Below, piece after piece: positions 44,893 to 54,523 of a stretch of 54,624 bases of DNA; the first letter of the stretch is position 1; every line of letters starts with the position of its first letter. The position numbers and the translations under genes were made by a program. The stretch lies in contig NZ_JAMXFC010000028.1 of the NCBI RefSeq assembly GCF_025370755.1, forward strand, positions 31,914-86,537. The letters run 5' to 3'. This DNA is from Laspinema sp. D2d (GTDB taxonomy: Bacteria > Cyanobacteriota > Cyanobacteriia > Cyanobacteriales > Laspinemataceae). Below the pieces are notes generated by a model. That model saw only the letters and a list, made by a program, of their open reading frames with translations. It did no database searches and had not been told where the DNA came from.

Positions 44893-45511
44893 AGTTTTAA
44901 GCAGAAACGGTTAGGGATGTTATGATGAAATATTCGTGATCGCAGACGGCAAAACTAGAAAGTCTCCGGTCCTAGTTAGAAGGCGATCGCGAAAAAAATA
45001 ACCCATACAATCTAAGAAAAATCGGCTAAAATCAAACCTTAATTGGAACCGAAAATTCTTTTGAATTTACAAAATTTGTTGGGTTTTTCTATCTTTATTT
45101 TCTCATATTTACTGCCCATTTTTCCATTTTTGTTATTTTTTTTAAAATATCTCCCGGGTCTGAGACAGACGTGCCAGCATCCAGATTAGAAGGGTGACCC
45201 GGGCCAGGGTCTCGTTGCGCCGAATCGGATGAGGCTTGAGCCACTCCATTCATGAGCGCGATCAGTTATCCACAATTCGGTTGTTAAAGCTCTATAACTA
45301 CAATTGAGGTGGTAACCGGATCCACTGTTATCGACTTCTGATTGAATAGGGCTTTTAGGCGATCGGCTATCCCAAAAAAGCCTTGTAAATAGAAGCTCAA
45401 ACCCCTGGTAAAATTGCTACCCAGATGAAACGAGCCGATATTTTTATAATACTTGCAAAGTTCTCCCATTATTATTATAATGTTTCCAAAATGAAAAATA
45501 TCCCTAGATTT
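44893..45511. other. AT-rich gap with a GC-rich structured segment
   Basis: Bases 44893-45150 and 45270-45511 are AT-rich and show nothing clear. Between them, 45150-45265 is GC-rich and includes an 8-bp perfect stem, CCCGGGTC (45153-45160) with GACCCGGG (45196-45203), and an inner GTCTGAGACAGAC palindrome. It could be a small structured RNA or a decayed gene end. Confidence 0.4.
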
Positions 45512-45808
45512 ATGACAACAAGTCTCAGAGAGTTACTTCAAGAAAACCGCGAGAAAATTCTGAACATTGCGACTCAGCATGGAGCGTATAATTTACGAAT
45601 TTTTGGATCCGTAGCACGGGGAGAGGAACGTGAGGATAGTGACGTAGATTTTCTTGTAGATATGGAAAGCGATCGCAATCTTTTAGATCGGATTGGCTTA
45701 ATGCAAGATTTACAAGACCTTTTAGGCAGAAAAGTAGATGTTGCTACGGTTAAAGTTTTGCGAGATTTTTGTCGAGAGAGTATTCTCAAAGATGCGGTGC
45801 CATTGTGA
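45512..45808 (+). CDS. mntA: MntA-type nucleotidyltransferase antitoxin
   Basis: The 98-residue minimal nucleotidyltransferase has the Pol-beta-type active site GSVARGEEREDSDVDFLVD (GSX10DXD). In HepT/MntA modules this protein silences the HEPN toxin by adding AMP to a tyrosine next to the toxin's RX4HXY motif. The ATG at 45512 begins MTTSLRELLQENREKIL, the usual family N-terminus; in-frame ATGs upstream at 45491 and 45425 are possible. It overlaps the toxin gene by four bases (GTGA), so the two are translationally coupled. Confidence 0.9.
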   Translation: MTTSLRELLQENREKILNIATQHGAYNLRIFGSVARGEEREDSDVDFLVDMESDRNLLDRIGLMQDLQDLLGRKVDVATVKVLRDFCRESILKDAVPL

Positions 45809-46149
45809 ACGAGGATTTATTTTTTCTAAAAGATATCTGCGATCGCATCGGACAAATCGAGATTTATACTCAACCAGGAAAAGCAGAATTTATTGAGTCT
45901 CGACTAATTCAGGACGCGGTAATTCGTAACTTTGAATTAATCGGAGAAGGGGTTAAGCGGCTTTCTAGTTCGTTGAGACAGACTTATCCAGCAATTCCCT
46001 GGCGGAAAATTGCAGGGTTTAGAGATGTTCTGATTCATGACTATCTGCAAATCGATTTAGATGAAGTCTGGGATGTCATCGATCGCAACTTACCAGAACT
46101 CAAGCACAATATTTTACAAATTATCCAAAAATTAGAGGATGAAAGCTAA
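45805..46149 (+). CDS. hepT: HepT-type HEPN toxin (DUF86 family)
   Basis: The 114-residue HEPN RNase-like toxin begins at GTG 45805 (VNEDLFFLKDICDRIGQIE). It contains FELIGEGVKRLSSSLRQTYP, WRKIAGFRDVLIHDYLQIDL and the catalytic RX4HXY (R-DVLI-H-D-Y), with the Tyr that MntA partners modify. HEPN toxins cleave RNA and stop growth when released, so the pair acts as a type VII-style toxin-antitoxin or phage-defence module. The partner antitoxin is directly upstream. Confidence 0.9.
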   Translation: MNEDLFFLKDICDRIGQIEIYTQPGKAEFIESRLIQDAVIRNFELIGEGVKRLSSSLRQTYPAIPWRKIAGFRDVLIHDYLQIDLDEVWDVIDRNLPELKHNILQIIQKLEDES

Positions 46150-46460: not shown

Positions 46461-49088
46461 ATGACCCCAGAACTCTTTAACCTGCTCAAGTGGATTCTCA
46501 ACACTATTTTATTGGTTGTTTTTGGCTTGTCCATCAATGCTTGCAGTGAACGGGCAACTCCCCGAAGGCAAAAACTGATCGTCCTCGGAATTGCACTGCT
46601 GGCGGGTCTCCTGGGGGCTTGGGTGAATGCTGTGGAGGTGAGTCAACTCCAACAACAACCCAATTCAGTTTATGTCAGTTTCGGCCTAAGCACAGGCTTT
46701 GGTCTGTCCGCGTTGGCGTACTTGTTGTGGCTTTATGGACAATCCAAACAACGGGAGGAGGAGTCACGATTGCGTCAAGGTCTACTGGAGCGGATTAGCA
46801 AGGACGTTGAAGACCGCCGCCAAGATTCCTTAGACCATTTGTACCATATCCCCGTTTCTGGACTTCCACAATCCCCAGGGTCTCATTGGTTATTTCGCCA
46901 GATTCAGGTGGTTGTCGGACAAAAGACTCGATTCCTTGATGTCTCTATCTCCAAACTCTTTTTTCAAGAGGATGTAGGGGGACAACTCTTGATTTTGGGA
47001 GAACCCGGAAGCGGTAAAACCACGGAACTGCTCGGTTTAGCGCAAACCCTTTGTAAACGGGCTCAGGAAAACCCTCAAGAAGAACCCATTCCGATTATCT
47101 TTGAATTGTCCGACTGGCGACCCTCTGGAAAACCGATTGAGGCGGCCACCCTGAATCGCTGGATGGTAGAGCAATTGCAGTTGAAATATGGGTTAGACCC
47201 TCAACTGAGCCAAGATTGGCTTCATCGTAACCGCCTGTTACCTCTATTGGATGGGTTGGATGAACTCAAGGATTTCATGGCAGAAGCAATTAGGGCTATC
47301 AATTCCATGCAGGAGGATAAGAAAGAACAACATCAAAAGTTGATCGTCTGTTCTCGGTCTCAAAATTATAAAGATTGTCCGGAAAAGTTGAGTCTGAGAA
47401 CAGCAGTTGAGCTAAAGCCCCTCGAAAATAAAGCGATTCAAGACTATTTGGACCACCGGAATGCCAGTCATCTTTGGAAGGTCTTAGACGCGAGTCCCCA
47501 GGGATGGCTCAAGTTGGCGAAAACCCCCCTGTTATTGGATTTAATGCCCAGGGCTTATCCAGCGCCGATTGTGCCAGATTGCCCAAAACAAGTGGGGGAA
47601 TCGGCTTGTCGTCGTCGGCTTTTTGAGGATTATAGTCATCGACAACTGACCCAGGAACACAACTCGGGGTATTCGGAGGAAGACAGTCGCCGCTATCTGC
47701 AACGGTTGGCTCAAATTCTCCGCCGTCAAGGACAGACGGAGTTCTTGATTGAGGAGATGCAGCCAGATTGGTTGGAAACTCCGAGACAAAAACGTTGGTT
47801 TAATTGGGGGTCTAGGCTGATTGAAGGGCTGATTTTCGGGCTGATTTTCGGGCTGATTTTCGGGCTGATTTTCGGGCTGATTTTCGGGGTGATTGGAGGG
47901 CTGATTGGAGGGCTGATTCAAGATGATAAAAATAATATAGAGTTAACAGAATACTTTGATTTATCTTGGTCGAATATCAAAGCTGCTATTCCATATTATT
48001 TGATTGGAGGGCTGATTGGAGGGCTGATTGGAGGGCTGATTTCAGGGCTGATTGGAGGGCTGATTTCAGGGCTGATTGTCGGGCTGATTGGAGGGCTGAT
48101 TGGAGGGCTGATTGTCGGGCTGATTGGAGGGCTGATTTTCGGGCTAAAAGCGAAACTTAAGGTCAAATCGTATCCCAATCAAGGGATTTGGGAATCTCTT
48201 AAGAAATCGGCAATTATCTCTGTGCTAACTACTCCAATTTGGATGATGGGATTTCTATTGATAGATGACTTGTTACTCAGGGCTGGACAAGCGGCTCGGT
48301 TGGGAAATCCAGCCACAGTAGTCATCTCGGGAATAGGGATGGGATTAATAATGGGCGCGTTTGGTGGGGGACTCAACTCGGTGCTTCACCATGTTTTACT
48401 GCGCTGGATTCTTTTTCAAAATCAGGTGATTCCTTGGAACTATGCTCGCTTTTTAACCTATGCCAGTGAACGGGGTTTACTGAAACAATCGGGGGGACGA
48501 TTTCGCTTCTATCATGACTTGCTGCGGGAAAATTTTGCTGGGGAAGACACTAAGAGCCCCCAACTGACCCTTGCTCCTCCTTCCCGCCTTTGGCTTAATT
48601 GGACTCTTGCTGTCATGCTGTTCTTGGGCGGGCTGTTATTGAATAGGAATGTTGTAACTGTGGGGATGAATACTGCTGTGATGATGTCTCCCACGTTAGA
48701 GGCTCAAGAACAGGTTTTAACCGATGACCTCACCTATCGCTATCGCACTCCTCAACGGGGAGATATCATTATCTTCAAAAGCGCTGACACCTTAGCCAAT
48801 CGTGAGGAGCGCTTTTATGCCCGCCGCATTATTGCCCTACCTCACGAAACCCTAGAGATTCGTCAGGGACAGGCGTTGATTAACGATCGCCCCCTGGAAA
48901 CCATCACCCTTCCCCCCCGCTATGAGCTAGACTCCCTCACCCTAGCTGCCGATGAATACTTCGTTGTGGGCGACAATGACGCCGTTGAGGAGTTCGAGGA
49001 GTTTGCTGAAATAGTTCCCCGACATCGCATCAATGCCCAAGTCTTGCTGAGAATCTCCCCCCTCTCCCGATGGGGCCGTCTTGATTAA
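46461..49088 (+). CDS. Membrane NACHT ATPase fused to a degenerate signal-peptidase-I domain
   Basis: The 875-residue STAND-class NTPase has these parts. Residues 1-95: three TM segments. 172-310: NACHT core, with Walker A GEPGSGKTT (180-188), Walker B LLPLLDGLDEL (259-269) and a sensor Arg in VCSRSQNY. 320-445: helical region. 455-486 and 514-561: long runs of GLIF/GLIG tetrapeptides, probably membrane-embedded glycine zippers. 580-650: further TMs. 711-728: a TM leading to a type I signal peptidase-like domain (730-875) with TYRYRTPQRGDIIIF, RRIIALPHETLEIRQGQALI, YFVVGDN and LLRISPLSRWG. At the Ser-nucleophile position (SMxPTL in active enzymes) the sequence is MMSPTL (M741). At the catalytic Lys it is R788. 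The domain is therefore probably inactive and used for binding. No function is established. Confidence 0.85.
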   Translation: MTPELFNLLKWILNTILLVVFGLSINACSERATPRRQKLIVLGIALLAGLLGAWVNAVEVSQLQQQPNSVYVSFGLSTGFGLSALAYLLWLYGQSKQREEESRLRQGLLERISKDVEDRRQDSLDHLYHIPVSGLPQSPGSHWLFRQIQVVVGQKTRFLDVSISKLFFQEDVGGQLLILGEPGSGKTTELLGLAQTLCKRAQENPQEEPIPIIFELSDWRPSGKPIEAATLNRWMVEQLQLKYGLDPQLSQDWLHRNRLLPLLDGLDELKDFMAEAIRAINSMQEDKKEQHQKLIVCSRSQNYKDCPEKLSLRTAVELKPLENKAIQDYLDHRNASHLWKVLDASPQGWLKLAKTPLLLDLMPRAYPAPIVPDCPKQVGESACRRRLFEDYSHRQLTQEHNSGYSEEDSRRYLQRLAQILRRQGQTEFLIEEMQPDWLETPRQKRWFNWGSRLIEGLIFGLIFGLIFGLIFGLIFGVIGGLIGGLIQDDKNNIELTEYFDLSWSNIKAAIPYYLIGGLIGGLIGGLISGLIGGLISGLIVGLIGGLIGGLIVGLIGGLIFGLKAKLKVKSYPNQGIWESLKKSAIISVLTTPIWMMGFLLIDDLLLRAGQAARLGNPATVVISGIGMGLIMGAFGGGLNSVLHHVLLRWILFQNQVIPWNYARFLTYASERGLLKQSGGRFRFYHDLLRENFAGEDTKSPQLTLAPPSRLWLNWTLAVMLFLGGLLLNRNVVTVGMNTAVMMSPTLEAQEQVLTDDLTYRYRTPQRGDIIIFKSADTLANREERFYARRIIALPHETLEIRQGQALINDRPLETITLPPRYELDSLTLAADEYFVVGDNDAVEEFEEFAEIVPRHRINAQVLLRISPLSRWGRLD
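47826..48143 (+). repeat. 12-bp coding minisatellite (GGGCTGATTxxx)n in the NACHT gene
   Basis: Two arrays (about 47826-47918 and 48002-48143) of the unit GGGCTGATT plus TTC, GGA, TCA or GTC encode GLIF, GLIG, GLIS and GLIV. The ~80-base spacer encodes a charged, non-repetitive segment. Copy number could change by slippage in steps of four residues without a frameshift. Confidence 0.85.
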
Positions 49089-51641: not shown

Positions 51642-52252
51642 TTAGCAATTCTCCTATATGAGATCAACTATGAAAACTTGTTAAGTCTTTCCATAAATAA
51701 AACCAATCATGGGCCATTTGCCCAAGGGGAAGATGAAAGGCGATTGCAACAGTCAAAGCAGACAATCCGATTCCCGGTTTAAATGCCTTGGAAACCGCCC
51801 GAATCCCGACATCCCCTCATCTTGCAATTGTACGCCAGTTACATCGCCTACCAACTGATTACAGTCAAGTATTAAGTTATGTTAATTTATCCCCAACCCT
51901 CTTGACTTTTTAACGACCCTTTGAAACACAAAGCCAATCCCCGATTAAATTTTGGCTAATTTGAATTATTGTTAAGCAGTGCATTCAGATAACCGAGGTA
52001 GCCTTATAATGCACGAACAGAAGCCACTAAGGTTGTCTTGCTCGACAGACCAGCATTTTGCTGGATTTTGAGAGCGGTTACTACACAAAATCCCGAGTTT
52101 GGATTAAACTAACAAACTTAAGAACCCTTAAAAGGTTTTTTAAAAAGTTGTAAGTCACCCAACACTCACCTTTTGTAGTGAACCGTTGCATTACGAGCAA
52201 CACCTAGGGTGAAATGTAAATTAGGTCCTTGTCTAGAGAGAGGAGAGTCTCG
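51642..52252 (+). promoter_or_regulatory. psaAB upstream region with a distal TATAAT
   Basis: These 611 bases hold no gene. A perfect TATAAT at 52005-52010 would start a transcript near 52017, giving a ~235-base leader. No TTGACA-like -35 is correctly spaced. Long leaders and more than one promoter are known for psaAB in Synechocystis. GAGAGGAGAG (52235-52244) is the ribosome site for psaA. The left part also serves the divergent lipoprotein gene. Confidence 0.55.
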
Positions 52253-54523
52253 ATGACGATTAGCCCTCCAGAGCGAGAGGCAAAAGTCAAGGTAACGGTA
52301 GATAAAGATCCCGTTCCCACCTCATTCGAGAAGTGGGCCAAACCGGGTCACTTTGACCGTACCTTGTCTCGCGGGCCCAAAACCACCACCTGGATTTGGA
52401 ACCTGCACGCTAATGCTCATGATTTCGATAGTCACACCAGCGATTTAGAAGACGTATCGCGCAAAATTTTTAGCGCACACTTCGGCCACCTGGCTGTAAT
52501 CTTCATCTGGTTAAGCGGTGCCTATTTCCACGGTGCCAAATTTTCCAACTATGAAGCATGGCTGACCGACCCGACTGGTATTAAACCCAGTGCCCAAGTG
52601 GTTTGGCCGATCTTCGGACAAGAAATTTTAAACGCCAACGTTGGGGGTGGATTCCACGGTATTCAGATCACTTCTGGTTTATTCCAGTTGTGGCGTGCCT
52701 CTGGAATCACCAATGAGTTTCAACTCTACTGCACCGCGATCGGTGCCTTGGTGATGGCAGCCTTGATGCTGTTCGCCGGTTGGTTCCATTATCACAAACG
52801 CGCTCCGAAACTGGAATGGTTCCAGAACGTGGAGTCGATGATGAACCATCACCTGGCTGGATTACTCGGTCTCGGCTCTTTGGGCTGGGCGGGTCACCAA
52901 ATTCACGTCTCTTTGCCGATCAACAAGCTCTTGGATTCTGGGGTGAATGCGAAAGACATTCCCTTACCCCATGAGTTCATCTTGAACCCGAGCTTGATGA
53001 CCCAGCTTTATCCGAGCGTGGATTGGGGATTCTTCAAAGGAGTAATTCCGTTCTTCACCCTCAACTGGGGCGTTTATAGTGACTTCCTCACCTTCAAAGG
53101 TGGCTTGAACCCCGTTACCGGCGGTTTGTGGTTGACTGACACGGCACACCATCACTTGGCGATCGCCGTTCTGTTCATCATCGCAGGCCATATGTACCGG
53201 ACCAACTGGGGTATCGGTCACAGCATGAAGGAAATCCTGGAAGCCCATAAAGGTCCTTTCACTGGTGAAGGCCATAAAGGTCTCTACGAAATCCTGACCA
53301 CCTCCTGGCACGCGCAACTCGCCATTAACCTGGCAATGATGGGTTCCTTGAGCATCATCGTGGCCCATCATATGTATTCGATGCCTCCGTATCCATACAT
53401 TGCCACCGACTACCCAACTCAGTTGTCCCTGTTCACTCACCATATGTGGATTGGCGGCTTCTTGATTGTCGGTGCAGGTGCTCACGCCTCCATCTTCATG
53501 GTGCGCGACTACGATCCAGCTAAGAACGTCAACAACTTGCTCGATCGCGTCCTACGTCACCGTGATGCAATCATCTCTCACCTGAACTGGGTCTGTATGT
53601 TCCTGGGCTTCCATAGCTTCGGGTTGTACGTTCACAACGACACCATGAGAGCCTTTGGTCGTCCCCAAGATATGTTCTCGGACTCGGCCATTCAACTTCA
53701 GCCCATCTTTGCCCAATGGGTGCAACACCTGCACTTCTTGGCGCCCGGTAACACCGCTCCGAATGCTCTAGCCCCGGCTAGTTTCGCCTTCGGTGGAGAT
53801 GTGGTCGCGGTGGGTGGAAAGGTTGCCATGATGCCGATTACCCTCGGTACCGCAGACTTCCTAATTCATCACATCCACGCTTTCACAATTCACGTTACCG
53901 TTTTAATCCTGCTCAAAGGGGTTCTGTTTGCCCGTAACTCTCGTCTGATTCCAGATAAGAGCGAACTCGGCTTCCGCTTCCCTTGCGACGGCCCCGGTCG
54001 TGGCGGCACCTGTCAAGTTTCCGGTTGGGACCATGTGTTCCTCGGACTCTTCTGGATGTACAACTCCCTCTCCATCGTAATTTTCCACTTTAGCTGGAAG
54101 ATGCAGTCGGATGTGTGGGGTACCGTTTCTCCTGATGGCTCCGTAGCTCACATTACCGGCGGTAACTTTGCTCAAAGTGCGATCACCATTAATGGTTGGT
54201 TGCGTGACTTCCTGTGGGCGCAAGCTTCTCAGGTGATTCAATCCTACGGAACTGCCTTATCCGCTTACGGTCTGCTGTTCCTCGGCGCTCACTTTGTGTG
54301 GGCATTCAGCCTCATGTTCCTGTTCAGCGGTCGCGGCTACTGGCAAGAACTGATTGAATCAATCGTCTGGGCACATAACAAACTGAAAGTTGCCCCGGCA
54401 ATTCAGCCTCGCGCTCTGAGTATCATTCAAGGACGTGCGGTTGGGGTTGCTCACTATCTCTTAGGAGGTATTGTGACGACCTGGGCATTCTTCCTGGCCC
54501 GCATTATTGCAGTCTCAGGATGA
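52253..54523 (+). CDS. psaA: Photosystem I P700 apoprotein A1
   Basis: The 756-residue core subunit of photosystem I binds P700, A0, A1 and, with PsaB, the FX 4Fe-4S cluster in the thylakoid. The start [20 protein letters not shown] is the normal PsaA N-terminus (ATG 52253 behind GAGAGGAGAG; an upstream in-frame ATG/GTG is not used). The FX motif [13 protein letters not shown] supplies two cysteines near residues 578-587, and many His-rich TM helices ([17 protein letters not shown]) coordinate chlorophyll. It is intact and full length. psaB follows after 24 bases, the standard operon. Confidence 0.98.

What the first reader, a model, noticed from the sequence alone, without database searches (positions are those of the whole stretch)
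46461..49088. NACHT ATPase fused through GLI-repeat membrane segments to a signal-peptidase-like domain lacking catalytic residues
Seen: Walker A and B of a NACHT core, tetrapeptide GLIF/GLIG arrays, and a C-terminal block with the conserved order of type I signal peptidase boxes (YRTPQRGDIIIF, RRIIALPHE, GDN, SPLSRWG). Established: active S26 enzymes need Ser in SMxPTL and Lys in the (K/R)R(V/I)I box. Here these positions are Met741 and Arg788. Inference: the domain is a pseudo-peptidase that may bind signal peptides or envelope proteins as the sensor of a membrane-bound STAND switch. That would be a new sensor type for NACHT proteins.
Basis: partly seen in the sequence, partly recalled or inferred. 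Interest (0 to 1): 0.82.

Follow-up and report, generated by a model that had tools for sequence, protein, structure and literature searches.

The report
Immune-like switch with dead signal peptidase
A cyanobacterial membrane protein of the class that includes animal immune switches carries, where such proteins often carry their sensor, a signal-peptidase domain that has lost its cutting residues, and relatives in other cyanobacterial families carry the same dead domain.

Summary
The 875-aa ORF at 46461-49088 has a NACHT domain and a C-terminal S26 signal-peptidase-I domain, both above curated cut-offs. Met741 and Arg788 replace the catalytic Ser and Lys. It is not one odd gene: a sample of 388 genomes of the order showed 23 such places in 22 genomes of seven families. 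Ser is present in 0 of 23, Lys in 5, an intact RxxSxDS box in 0. The S26 domains group apart from 28 ordinary ones. All 11 bearer genomes tested also keep ordinary signal peptidase genes. Relatives of the scaffold end without this domain, or carry WD40 or TPR-ClpS there, so S26 sits in an interchangeable C-terminal slot. Many columns of the former substrate strands and active-site loop vary, while D755, R762 and E796 are nearly invariant. The gene changes fast and probably moved between families. I read it as a membrane STAND switch with a non-cutting, extracytoplasmic S26-derived sensor. Signal-peptide binding is not supported. Ligand and output are unknown; no structure could be computed (queue full throughout).

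The parts
46461..49088 (+). NACHT-S26 gene, 875 aa
46473..46640 (+). N-terminal hydrophobic segments (residues 5-30 and 37-60); no N-terminal effector domain above a Pfam cut-off
   Evidence: hydropathy; Pfam
46986..47456 (+). NACHT NTPase domain (residues 176-332; Walker A GEPGSGKTT, Walker B LLPLLDGLDEL)
   Evidence: PF05729; motifs read
47808..47924 (+). first GLI(F/G) hydrophobic array (residues 450-488), 12-bp tandem repeat 47815-47918
47994..48158 (+). second GLI array (residues 512-566), 12-bp tandem repeat 48001-48137
48432..48542 (+). conserved PWNYARFLTYA...GGRFRFYHDLLRENFAG segment; S26-less relatives that were read end at or soon after it
   Evidence: reading it as the end of the STAND winged-helix region is recalled, not tested
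48588..48662 (+). hydrophobic segment before S26 (residues 710-734)
48663..49085 (+). S26 signal-peptidase-like domain (residues 735-875) without the catalytic dyad
48681..48683 (+). Met741 at the catalytic Ser position
48822..48824 (+). Arg788 at the catalytic Lys position
48969..49019 (+). GDNDAVEEFEEFAEIVP in place of GDNRxxSxDSxxxGxVP (residues 837-853)

Best explanation
The protein is a membrane-embedded STAND/NACHT switch. The NACHT ATPase lies in the cytoplasm. The C-terminal slot, which in relatives is empty or holds WD40 or TPR-ClpS, here holds a catalytically dead S26 domain placed outside the membrane (periplasm or thylakoid lumen) by the hydrophobic segment before it. The S26 fold acts as a non-cutting ligand-binding sensor whose former substrate face has diversified. 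Binding would change the contact with the NACHT module through that segment and trigger ATP-dependent assembly. The output is probably at the membrane, because no nuclease, TIR or protease effector domain was matched. Shown: architecture, loss of the dyad in all 23 copies found, grouping of the S26 domains, interchangeable slot, fast protein evolution, dS that fits transfer between two families. Inferred: topology, sensor role, trigger, output, and a conflict (anti-phage or similar) function.
For: S26 homology by Pfam, NCBIfam and profile-to-PDB (4me8, E 5.6e-18); four of four fused relatives scanned have both domains above cut-off. Each of 23 rows keeps 0-2 of 9 active-site columns but 15-27 of 46-50 other conserved ones: window 0 of 9 versus 24 of 48, Fisher p 0.007; L096, the row nearest to enzymes at 49% identity, 0 of 9 versus 27 of 49; p below 0.05 in 13 of 23 rows. 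D755 21 of 21 (enzymes E 19, D 8, L 1), E796 21 of 21 (enzymes D 19, E 7, Q 2), R762 20 of 21 (enzymes 11 of 28), although fused domains are more divergent overall (mean identity 0.41 versus 0.61). Same scaffold with other tails. dS between G000 and G002 (different families) 0.47 versus cysE 2.57, psaA 1.44 and lepB saturated. Patchy presence, 22 of 388 genomes.
Against: No ligand, expression or phenotype data. The S26 domain is dispensable in evolution: relatives have apparently lost it (L010 in the window's own genome, L146), and 3 of 23 copies are interrupted (L092, L093, L095). dN/dS of the S26 part (0.19-0.67 in seven pairs) is mostly higher than in lepB controls (0.08-0.31 in six pairs), which also fits relaxed constraint. 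Positions 755 and 796 are acidic in nearly all enzymes too (27 and 26 of 28), so only R762 is clearly new. Active-site loss is not significantly stronger than general divergence in 10 of 23 rows. No conserved neighbour (at most 5 of 23). PADLOC gives two weak hits only. Transfer is not seen in three of eight pairs. No structure model was obtained.
Confidence: 0.52

Rival explanations
1. The dead S26 domain is not a ligand sensor but a docking module: it places the NACHT protein at the Sec translocon or at real signal peptidase, which the NACHT then guards, as bNACHT25 is proposed to guard DnaJ.
For: S26 homology and membrane-proximal placement kept; conserved polar positions could be a protein interface; each of 11 bearer genomes tested has at least two matches to ordinary lepB, at least one with PSxSMxP; guard precedent in PMC12169576 (passages).
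Against: No partner known; the interface cannot be placed without a structure.
Confidence: 0.2
2. The S26 tail is a drifting remnant with little function; the NACHT works without it.
For: Several apparent losses at the junction (L010, L146, stops in L093 and L095); raised dN/dS.
Against: 18 of 23 copies are uninterrupted frames with P-loop and S26, in six families; dN/dS is below 1 in all seven pairs; some columns are more conserved than in the enzymes.
Confidence: 0.14
3. The domain is still a peptidase with rearranged catalysis.
For: The window protein passes the signal peptidase I equivalog cut-off; five of 23 keep Lys, with Gly at the Ser position, and three of 23 have Thr at the Ser position, with Met at the Lys position.
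Against: No row has Ser or Thr together with Lys; no conserved Ser, Cys, Lys or His that could replace the dyad; intact RxxSxDS box in 0 of 23.
Confidence: 0.04
4. Housekeeping regulator of secretion or thylakoid biogenesis, unrelated to conflict.
For: S26 belongs to the secretion pathway; STAND proteins are not all defence proteins (recalled; no call).
Against: Patchy presence, apparent transfer between families and fast evolution.
Confidence: 0.1

Closest known systems
Type I signal peptidase (S26; LepB, SipS, SpsB)
   Same: Sequence homology over the catalytic domain, hydrophobic segment just before it, RGD(I/V) box and core columns
   Different: No Ser/Lys dyad, no intact RxxSxDS box, substrate-strand columns not conserved, fused behind a NACHT module
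Staphylococcus aureus SpsA
   Same: Signal peptidase I homologue said to lack two conserved catalytic residues (PMC12445088, passages)
   Different: No NTPase fusion (recalled)
Bacterial NLR-related NACHT proteins (bNACHT; e.g. bNACHT25)
   Same: Central NACHT NTPase; named C-terminal domains that differ by clade; indirect sensing through a host protein proposed for bNACHT25 (PMC12169576, passages)
   Different: Membrane arrays inside the scaffold, no nuclease domain matched, S26-derived C-terminus; no defence test
Catalytically inactive peptidase domains in bacterial conflict systems (PMC7159879)
   Same: Dead peptidase folds reused in conflict systems (inactive caspase and trypsin domains; passages)
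   Different: Those are caspase and trypsin folds; 'signal peptidase' does not occur in the main text searched

Membership tests
S26 signal peptidase I (active enzyme) | Sequence homology to the S26 domain | tested here: met
   PF10502 52.3 bits, TIGR02227 58.9 bits, both above cut-off; TIGR02227 matches 21 of 21 tails scanned at E <= 0.001
S26 signal peptidase I (active enzyme) | Catalytic Ser in SMxPTL | tested here: not met
   Met741; 0 of 23 homologues have Ser
S26 signal peptidase I (active enzyme) | Catalytic Lys in (K)R(V/I)I | tested here: not met
   Arg788; Lys in 5 of 23, each with Gly at the Ser position
S26 signal peptidase I (active enzyme) | Signal peptide cleavage | not testable with these tools
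   needs an assay
NACHT / STAND NTPase | NACHT domain with Walker A and B | tested here: met
   PF05729 43.9 bits; GEPGSGKTT, LLPLLDGLDEL
NACHT / STAND NTPase | Variable C-terminal sensor after the STAND module | tested here: inconclusive
   Same slot holds nothing, WD40 or TPR-ClpS in relatives; sensing not tested
Bacterial NLR anti-phage protein (bNACHT) | Protection against phage | not testable with these tools
   no experiment; PADLOC gives weak hits only, mad8 22.5 bits and PDC-M54A 12.8 bits
Bacterial NLR anti-phage protein (bNACHT) | Recognisable effector domain (not in every clade: clade 14 is said to lack one) | tested here: inconclusive
   None above a Pfam cut-off, only hydrophobic segments

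The most novel reading that the evidence does not exclude
Cyanobacteria own a family of membrane NLR-like receptors that recruited a signal peptidase, lost its active site early, and turned it into a receptor domain facing the periplasm or thylakoid lumen. Its former substrate face diversifies while a few interface residues are held, so a secretion enzyme became an immune sensor or decoy. The TPR-ClpS version of the same scaffold would be a parallel recruitment of a proteolysis adaptor.
Probability: 0.38. Interest if true: 0.82.

Novelty: new variant of a known kind. Interest (0 to 1): 0.63.

Why it matters
The sensors of tested bacterial STAND switches are, as far as I recall, cytoplasmic. 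A transmembrane version with a dead signal peptidase outside the membrane would show how envelope events reach a NACHT switch, and it offers a defined domain with defined residues to test. It also flags a naming hazard: the window protein passes the cut-off of the 'signal peptidase I' equivalog model although none of the 23 copies found has the Ser/Lys dyad.

Tried and rejected
Alternative alignment of the dyad: Ser743 lies at the x of SMxPTL and is Ser in 9 of 23 but Glu, Asp, Lys, Asn, His, Thr and others elsewhere, so it is not a conserved nucleophile. Glycine-zipper pore from the GLI arrays: in the 18 distinct rows scored, GxxxG counts exceed every one of 500 shuffles in 15; L102 (2), L057 (8) and L105 (7) do not, so it is not a family-wide requirement. 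Operon partner: none shared by more than 5 of 23. Plasmids: only matches within query residues 79-451 in 6 records, none covering 80%. Viral contigs: 26 stretches matched the single junction pattern used, none a relative. Monophyly of the fused NACHT cores: rejected, the label needs 7 changes on a 56-row NACHT tree, so S26 was lost or swapped several times; two 'bare' rows (L148, L150) are cut before the tail and may be mislabelled, which could lower that number. Weak points of the counts: the listings were capped, and fusions scoring below ordinary S26 genes would not be seen. Of 50 scaffold loci fetched, I read 42 tails; 8 did not fit my search pattern and were not read, and those were chosen for long frames. 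Literature: one search (NACHT, signal peptidase; 15 papers, all listed) showed no paper whose title or abstract start suggests such a fusion; others (15 of 43 listed; 10 of 13,596 listed, mostly unrelated; 2 of 2; 5 of 6) likewise; some served for precedents. Subscription journals and preprints are not held. After checking against the calls I lowered the best explanation from 0.55 to 0.52 and the novel case from 0.40 to 0.38, and raised the decay rival from 0.12 to 0.14 and the altered-catalysis rival from 0.03 to 0.04, because 755 and 796 are acidic in the enzymes too, 10 of 23 rows show no significant excess of active-site loss, and three rows have Thr at the Ser position.

Full report
CHECK. 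The ORF at 46461-49088 encodes 875 aa. NACHT (176-332) and S26 (Pfam 712-840; TIGR02227 718-867) score above their curated cut-offs. A PDB sequence search with the domain finds signal peptidase I best (4me8, E 3.3e-5), and a 21-row profile finds six chains: four named signal peptidase I or IB, plus SipA and LepA (4me8, E 5.6e-18). The GDNRxxSxDS box reads GDNDAVEEFEEF.

ARCHITECTURE. Hydropathy gives hydrophobic stretches at 5-30, 37-60, 450-488, 509-568, 583-606, 617-638 and 710-734. The GLI arrays are 12-bp tandem repeats and lie between the NACHT domain and the conserved GGRFRFYHDLLRE segment, not next to S26. I recall FxFxH....E..A as the end of the STAND winged-helix region; this was not tested. 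The 710-734 segment followed closely by the S26 core matches the layout of ordinary signal peptidases (recalled), so I infer that S26 lies in the periplasm or thylakoid lumen. The host is a cyanobacterium: PsaA-like gene at 52229-54523 (recalled from its sequence) and a 76-77% identical relative in Geitlerinema sp. P-1104.

FAMILY. A scan of 386 phylum genomes with residues 590-875 showed four NACHT-S26 genes; a 21-row profile on 386 phylum genomes again showed four, all in the window's order; both listings were capped. A scan of 388 order genomes showed 23 in 22 genomes of seven family codes. Of the 23, 18 are uninterrupted frames with P-loop and S26, two are cut by contig ends (L096, L100), and three are interrupted: L092 (NACHT part in a separate frame), L093 (TGA) and L095 (TAA). 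Two small family scans found 1 of 6 and 2 of 13 genomes, all already counted. In the window's genus code, 5 of 8 genomes of the draw have it.

ACTIVE SITE. Ser column: Ala 8, Gly 6, Met 5, Thr 3, Ile 1. Lys column: Arg 14, Lys 5, Met 4. RxxSxDS is intact in none, and its Asp is kept in none. No Ser, Cys, Lys or His column reaches 80% conservation; Thr758 and Thr797 do, outside the active-site motifs. The 28 ordinary rows came from 29 fetched non-fused loci, picked by an SMxP pattern; the 29th (L044) also has PSGSM. Against columns conserved in those 28, the window keeps 0 of 9 active-site and 24 of 48 other columns. Over all 23 rows the active-site number is 0-2 of 9; Fisher p is below 0.05 in 13 rows and not in 10, among them the five that keep Lys. 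The fused S26 domains are one side of a branch, support 100/100, with long-branch warnings. L096, the row nearest to enzymes (49%), lacks all nine, which suggests early loss of Ser; the five Lys rows mean that Lys was lost later or regained.

WHAT REPLACED IT. Twenty-nine columns that are conserved in enzymes are variable in the fused domains. Eighteen of them lie in 732-741, 785-787 and 838-853 (the strand before Ser, the strand into Lys, and the active-site loop); eleven lie elsewhere. Core columns such as P744, F772, P794, N808, P867, R870 and G872 stay (L093 and L095 left out, 21 rows). D755 and E796 are invariant in 21 of 21; in enzymes these columns are acidic too but mixed (E19 D8 L1; D19 E7 Q2). 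R762 is 20 of 21 against 11 of 28, T797 18 of 21 against 16 of 28. Mean identity is 0.41 in the fused and 0.61 in the ordinary set. This argues against plain decay and against conserved signal-peptide binding. Which residues face which side is unknown without a structure.

SLOT. With residues 111-692 as query, 83 of 148 order genomes hold relatives at E <= 1e-30. I read 42 tails of 50 loci. Twenty-two end at or soon after the FRFYHD-like segment. Seven continue into S26, one is the stop-interrupted L093 gene, and one is a relic (L146). Five show WD repeats (L149, L153, L154, L156, L162; read by eye, not scanned). Three carry TPR plus ClpS (L168, L169, L181; Pfam ClpS 55.6, 39.3 and 57.7 bits). 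Three are cut. The paralogue beside the Geitlerinema gene ends at the segment. In the window's own genome L010 ends ...FFGWSLHRR, matching the start of the S26 linker of its nearest relatives, with no S26 after it. On a 56-row NACHT tree the S26 label needs seven changes: one S26 group with several losses or swaps.

EVOLUTION. Seven pairs give S26 dN/dS 0.19-0.67 and NACHT 0.16-0.57. Ordinary lepB gives 0.08-0.31 in six pairs; the seventh is saturated. Between G000 and G002, of different families, the fused gene has dS 0.47, but cysE 2.57, psaA 1.44 and lepB is saturated; G000-G298 gives 0.56, 1.77 and 1.67 (lepB not compared). So the gene probably moved between families. G213-G426 is also lower than its controls (0.16 against 0.33, 0.21, 0.67). 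G438-G449 (0.35 against 0.09, 0.11, 0.21) and the two G429 pairs are higher, and G494-G298 (0.30 against 0.23, 0.76, 0.53) is mixed. G000-G438 has dS 0.12 (psaA 0.11, cysE 0.23, lepB 0.22) but dN 0.087 against 0.005-0.017, so the protein changes fast. No plasmid or viral copy was found, and no neighbour is shared by more than 5 of 23.

READING. A membrane STAND switch with a non-catalytic S26-derived extracytoplasmic sensor is the best fit (0.52). The main rival is a docking module for the secretion machinery that the NACHT guards (0.2). Precedents, from passages only: SpsA lacks catalytic residues (PMC12445088); bNACHT25 senses through DnaJ (PMC12169576); inactive caspase and trypsin domains in conflict systems (PMC7159879); NACHT and CLec domains predicted to be periplasmic for one target of a DGR locus (PMC10907252).

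LIMITS. No structure, no expression, no phenotype. The order and phylum draws are samples with capped listings. Fused copies that score below ordinary S26 genes would be missed.

Noticed in passing
L168:1709-4132, L169:1700-4087, L181:1885-4332: NACHT proteins of the same membrane scaffold ending in TPR repeats plus a ClpS domain (protease adaptor), at the place where the window protein has S26.
   Followed up: partly
window 45425-46149: Nucleotidyltransferase (PF01909) and HepT-like (PF01934) pair directly upstream, like an MNT-HEPN toxin-antitoxin module; it is not among the neighbour groups shared by three or more fused loci.
   Followed up: partly
L010 (own genome C17, NACHT match 99777-100259) and L146: NACHT relatives that end within the linker where close relatives continue into S26: apparent S26 losses.
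   Followed up: partly
L104:5483-6001 and similar ORFs in the L103, L105 and L106 loci: A small ORF shared by four NACHT-S26 loci (G429, G486, G505, G581); in L104 it lies directly upstream of the NACHT gene, its place in the others was not checked; not identified.
   Followed up: no
own genome G000: 21 matches to the NACHT profile at E <= 0.001, 14 over the cut-off, in one 6.6-Mb genome, the window gene included; some weak ones look like other P-loop proteins.
   Followed up: no
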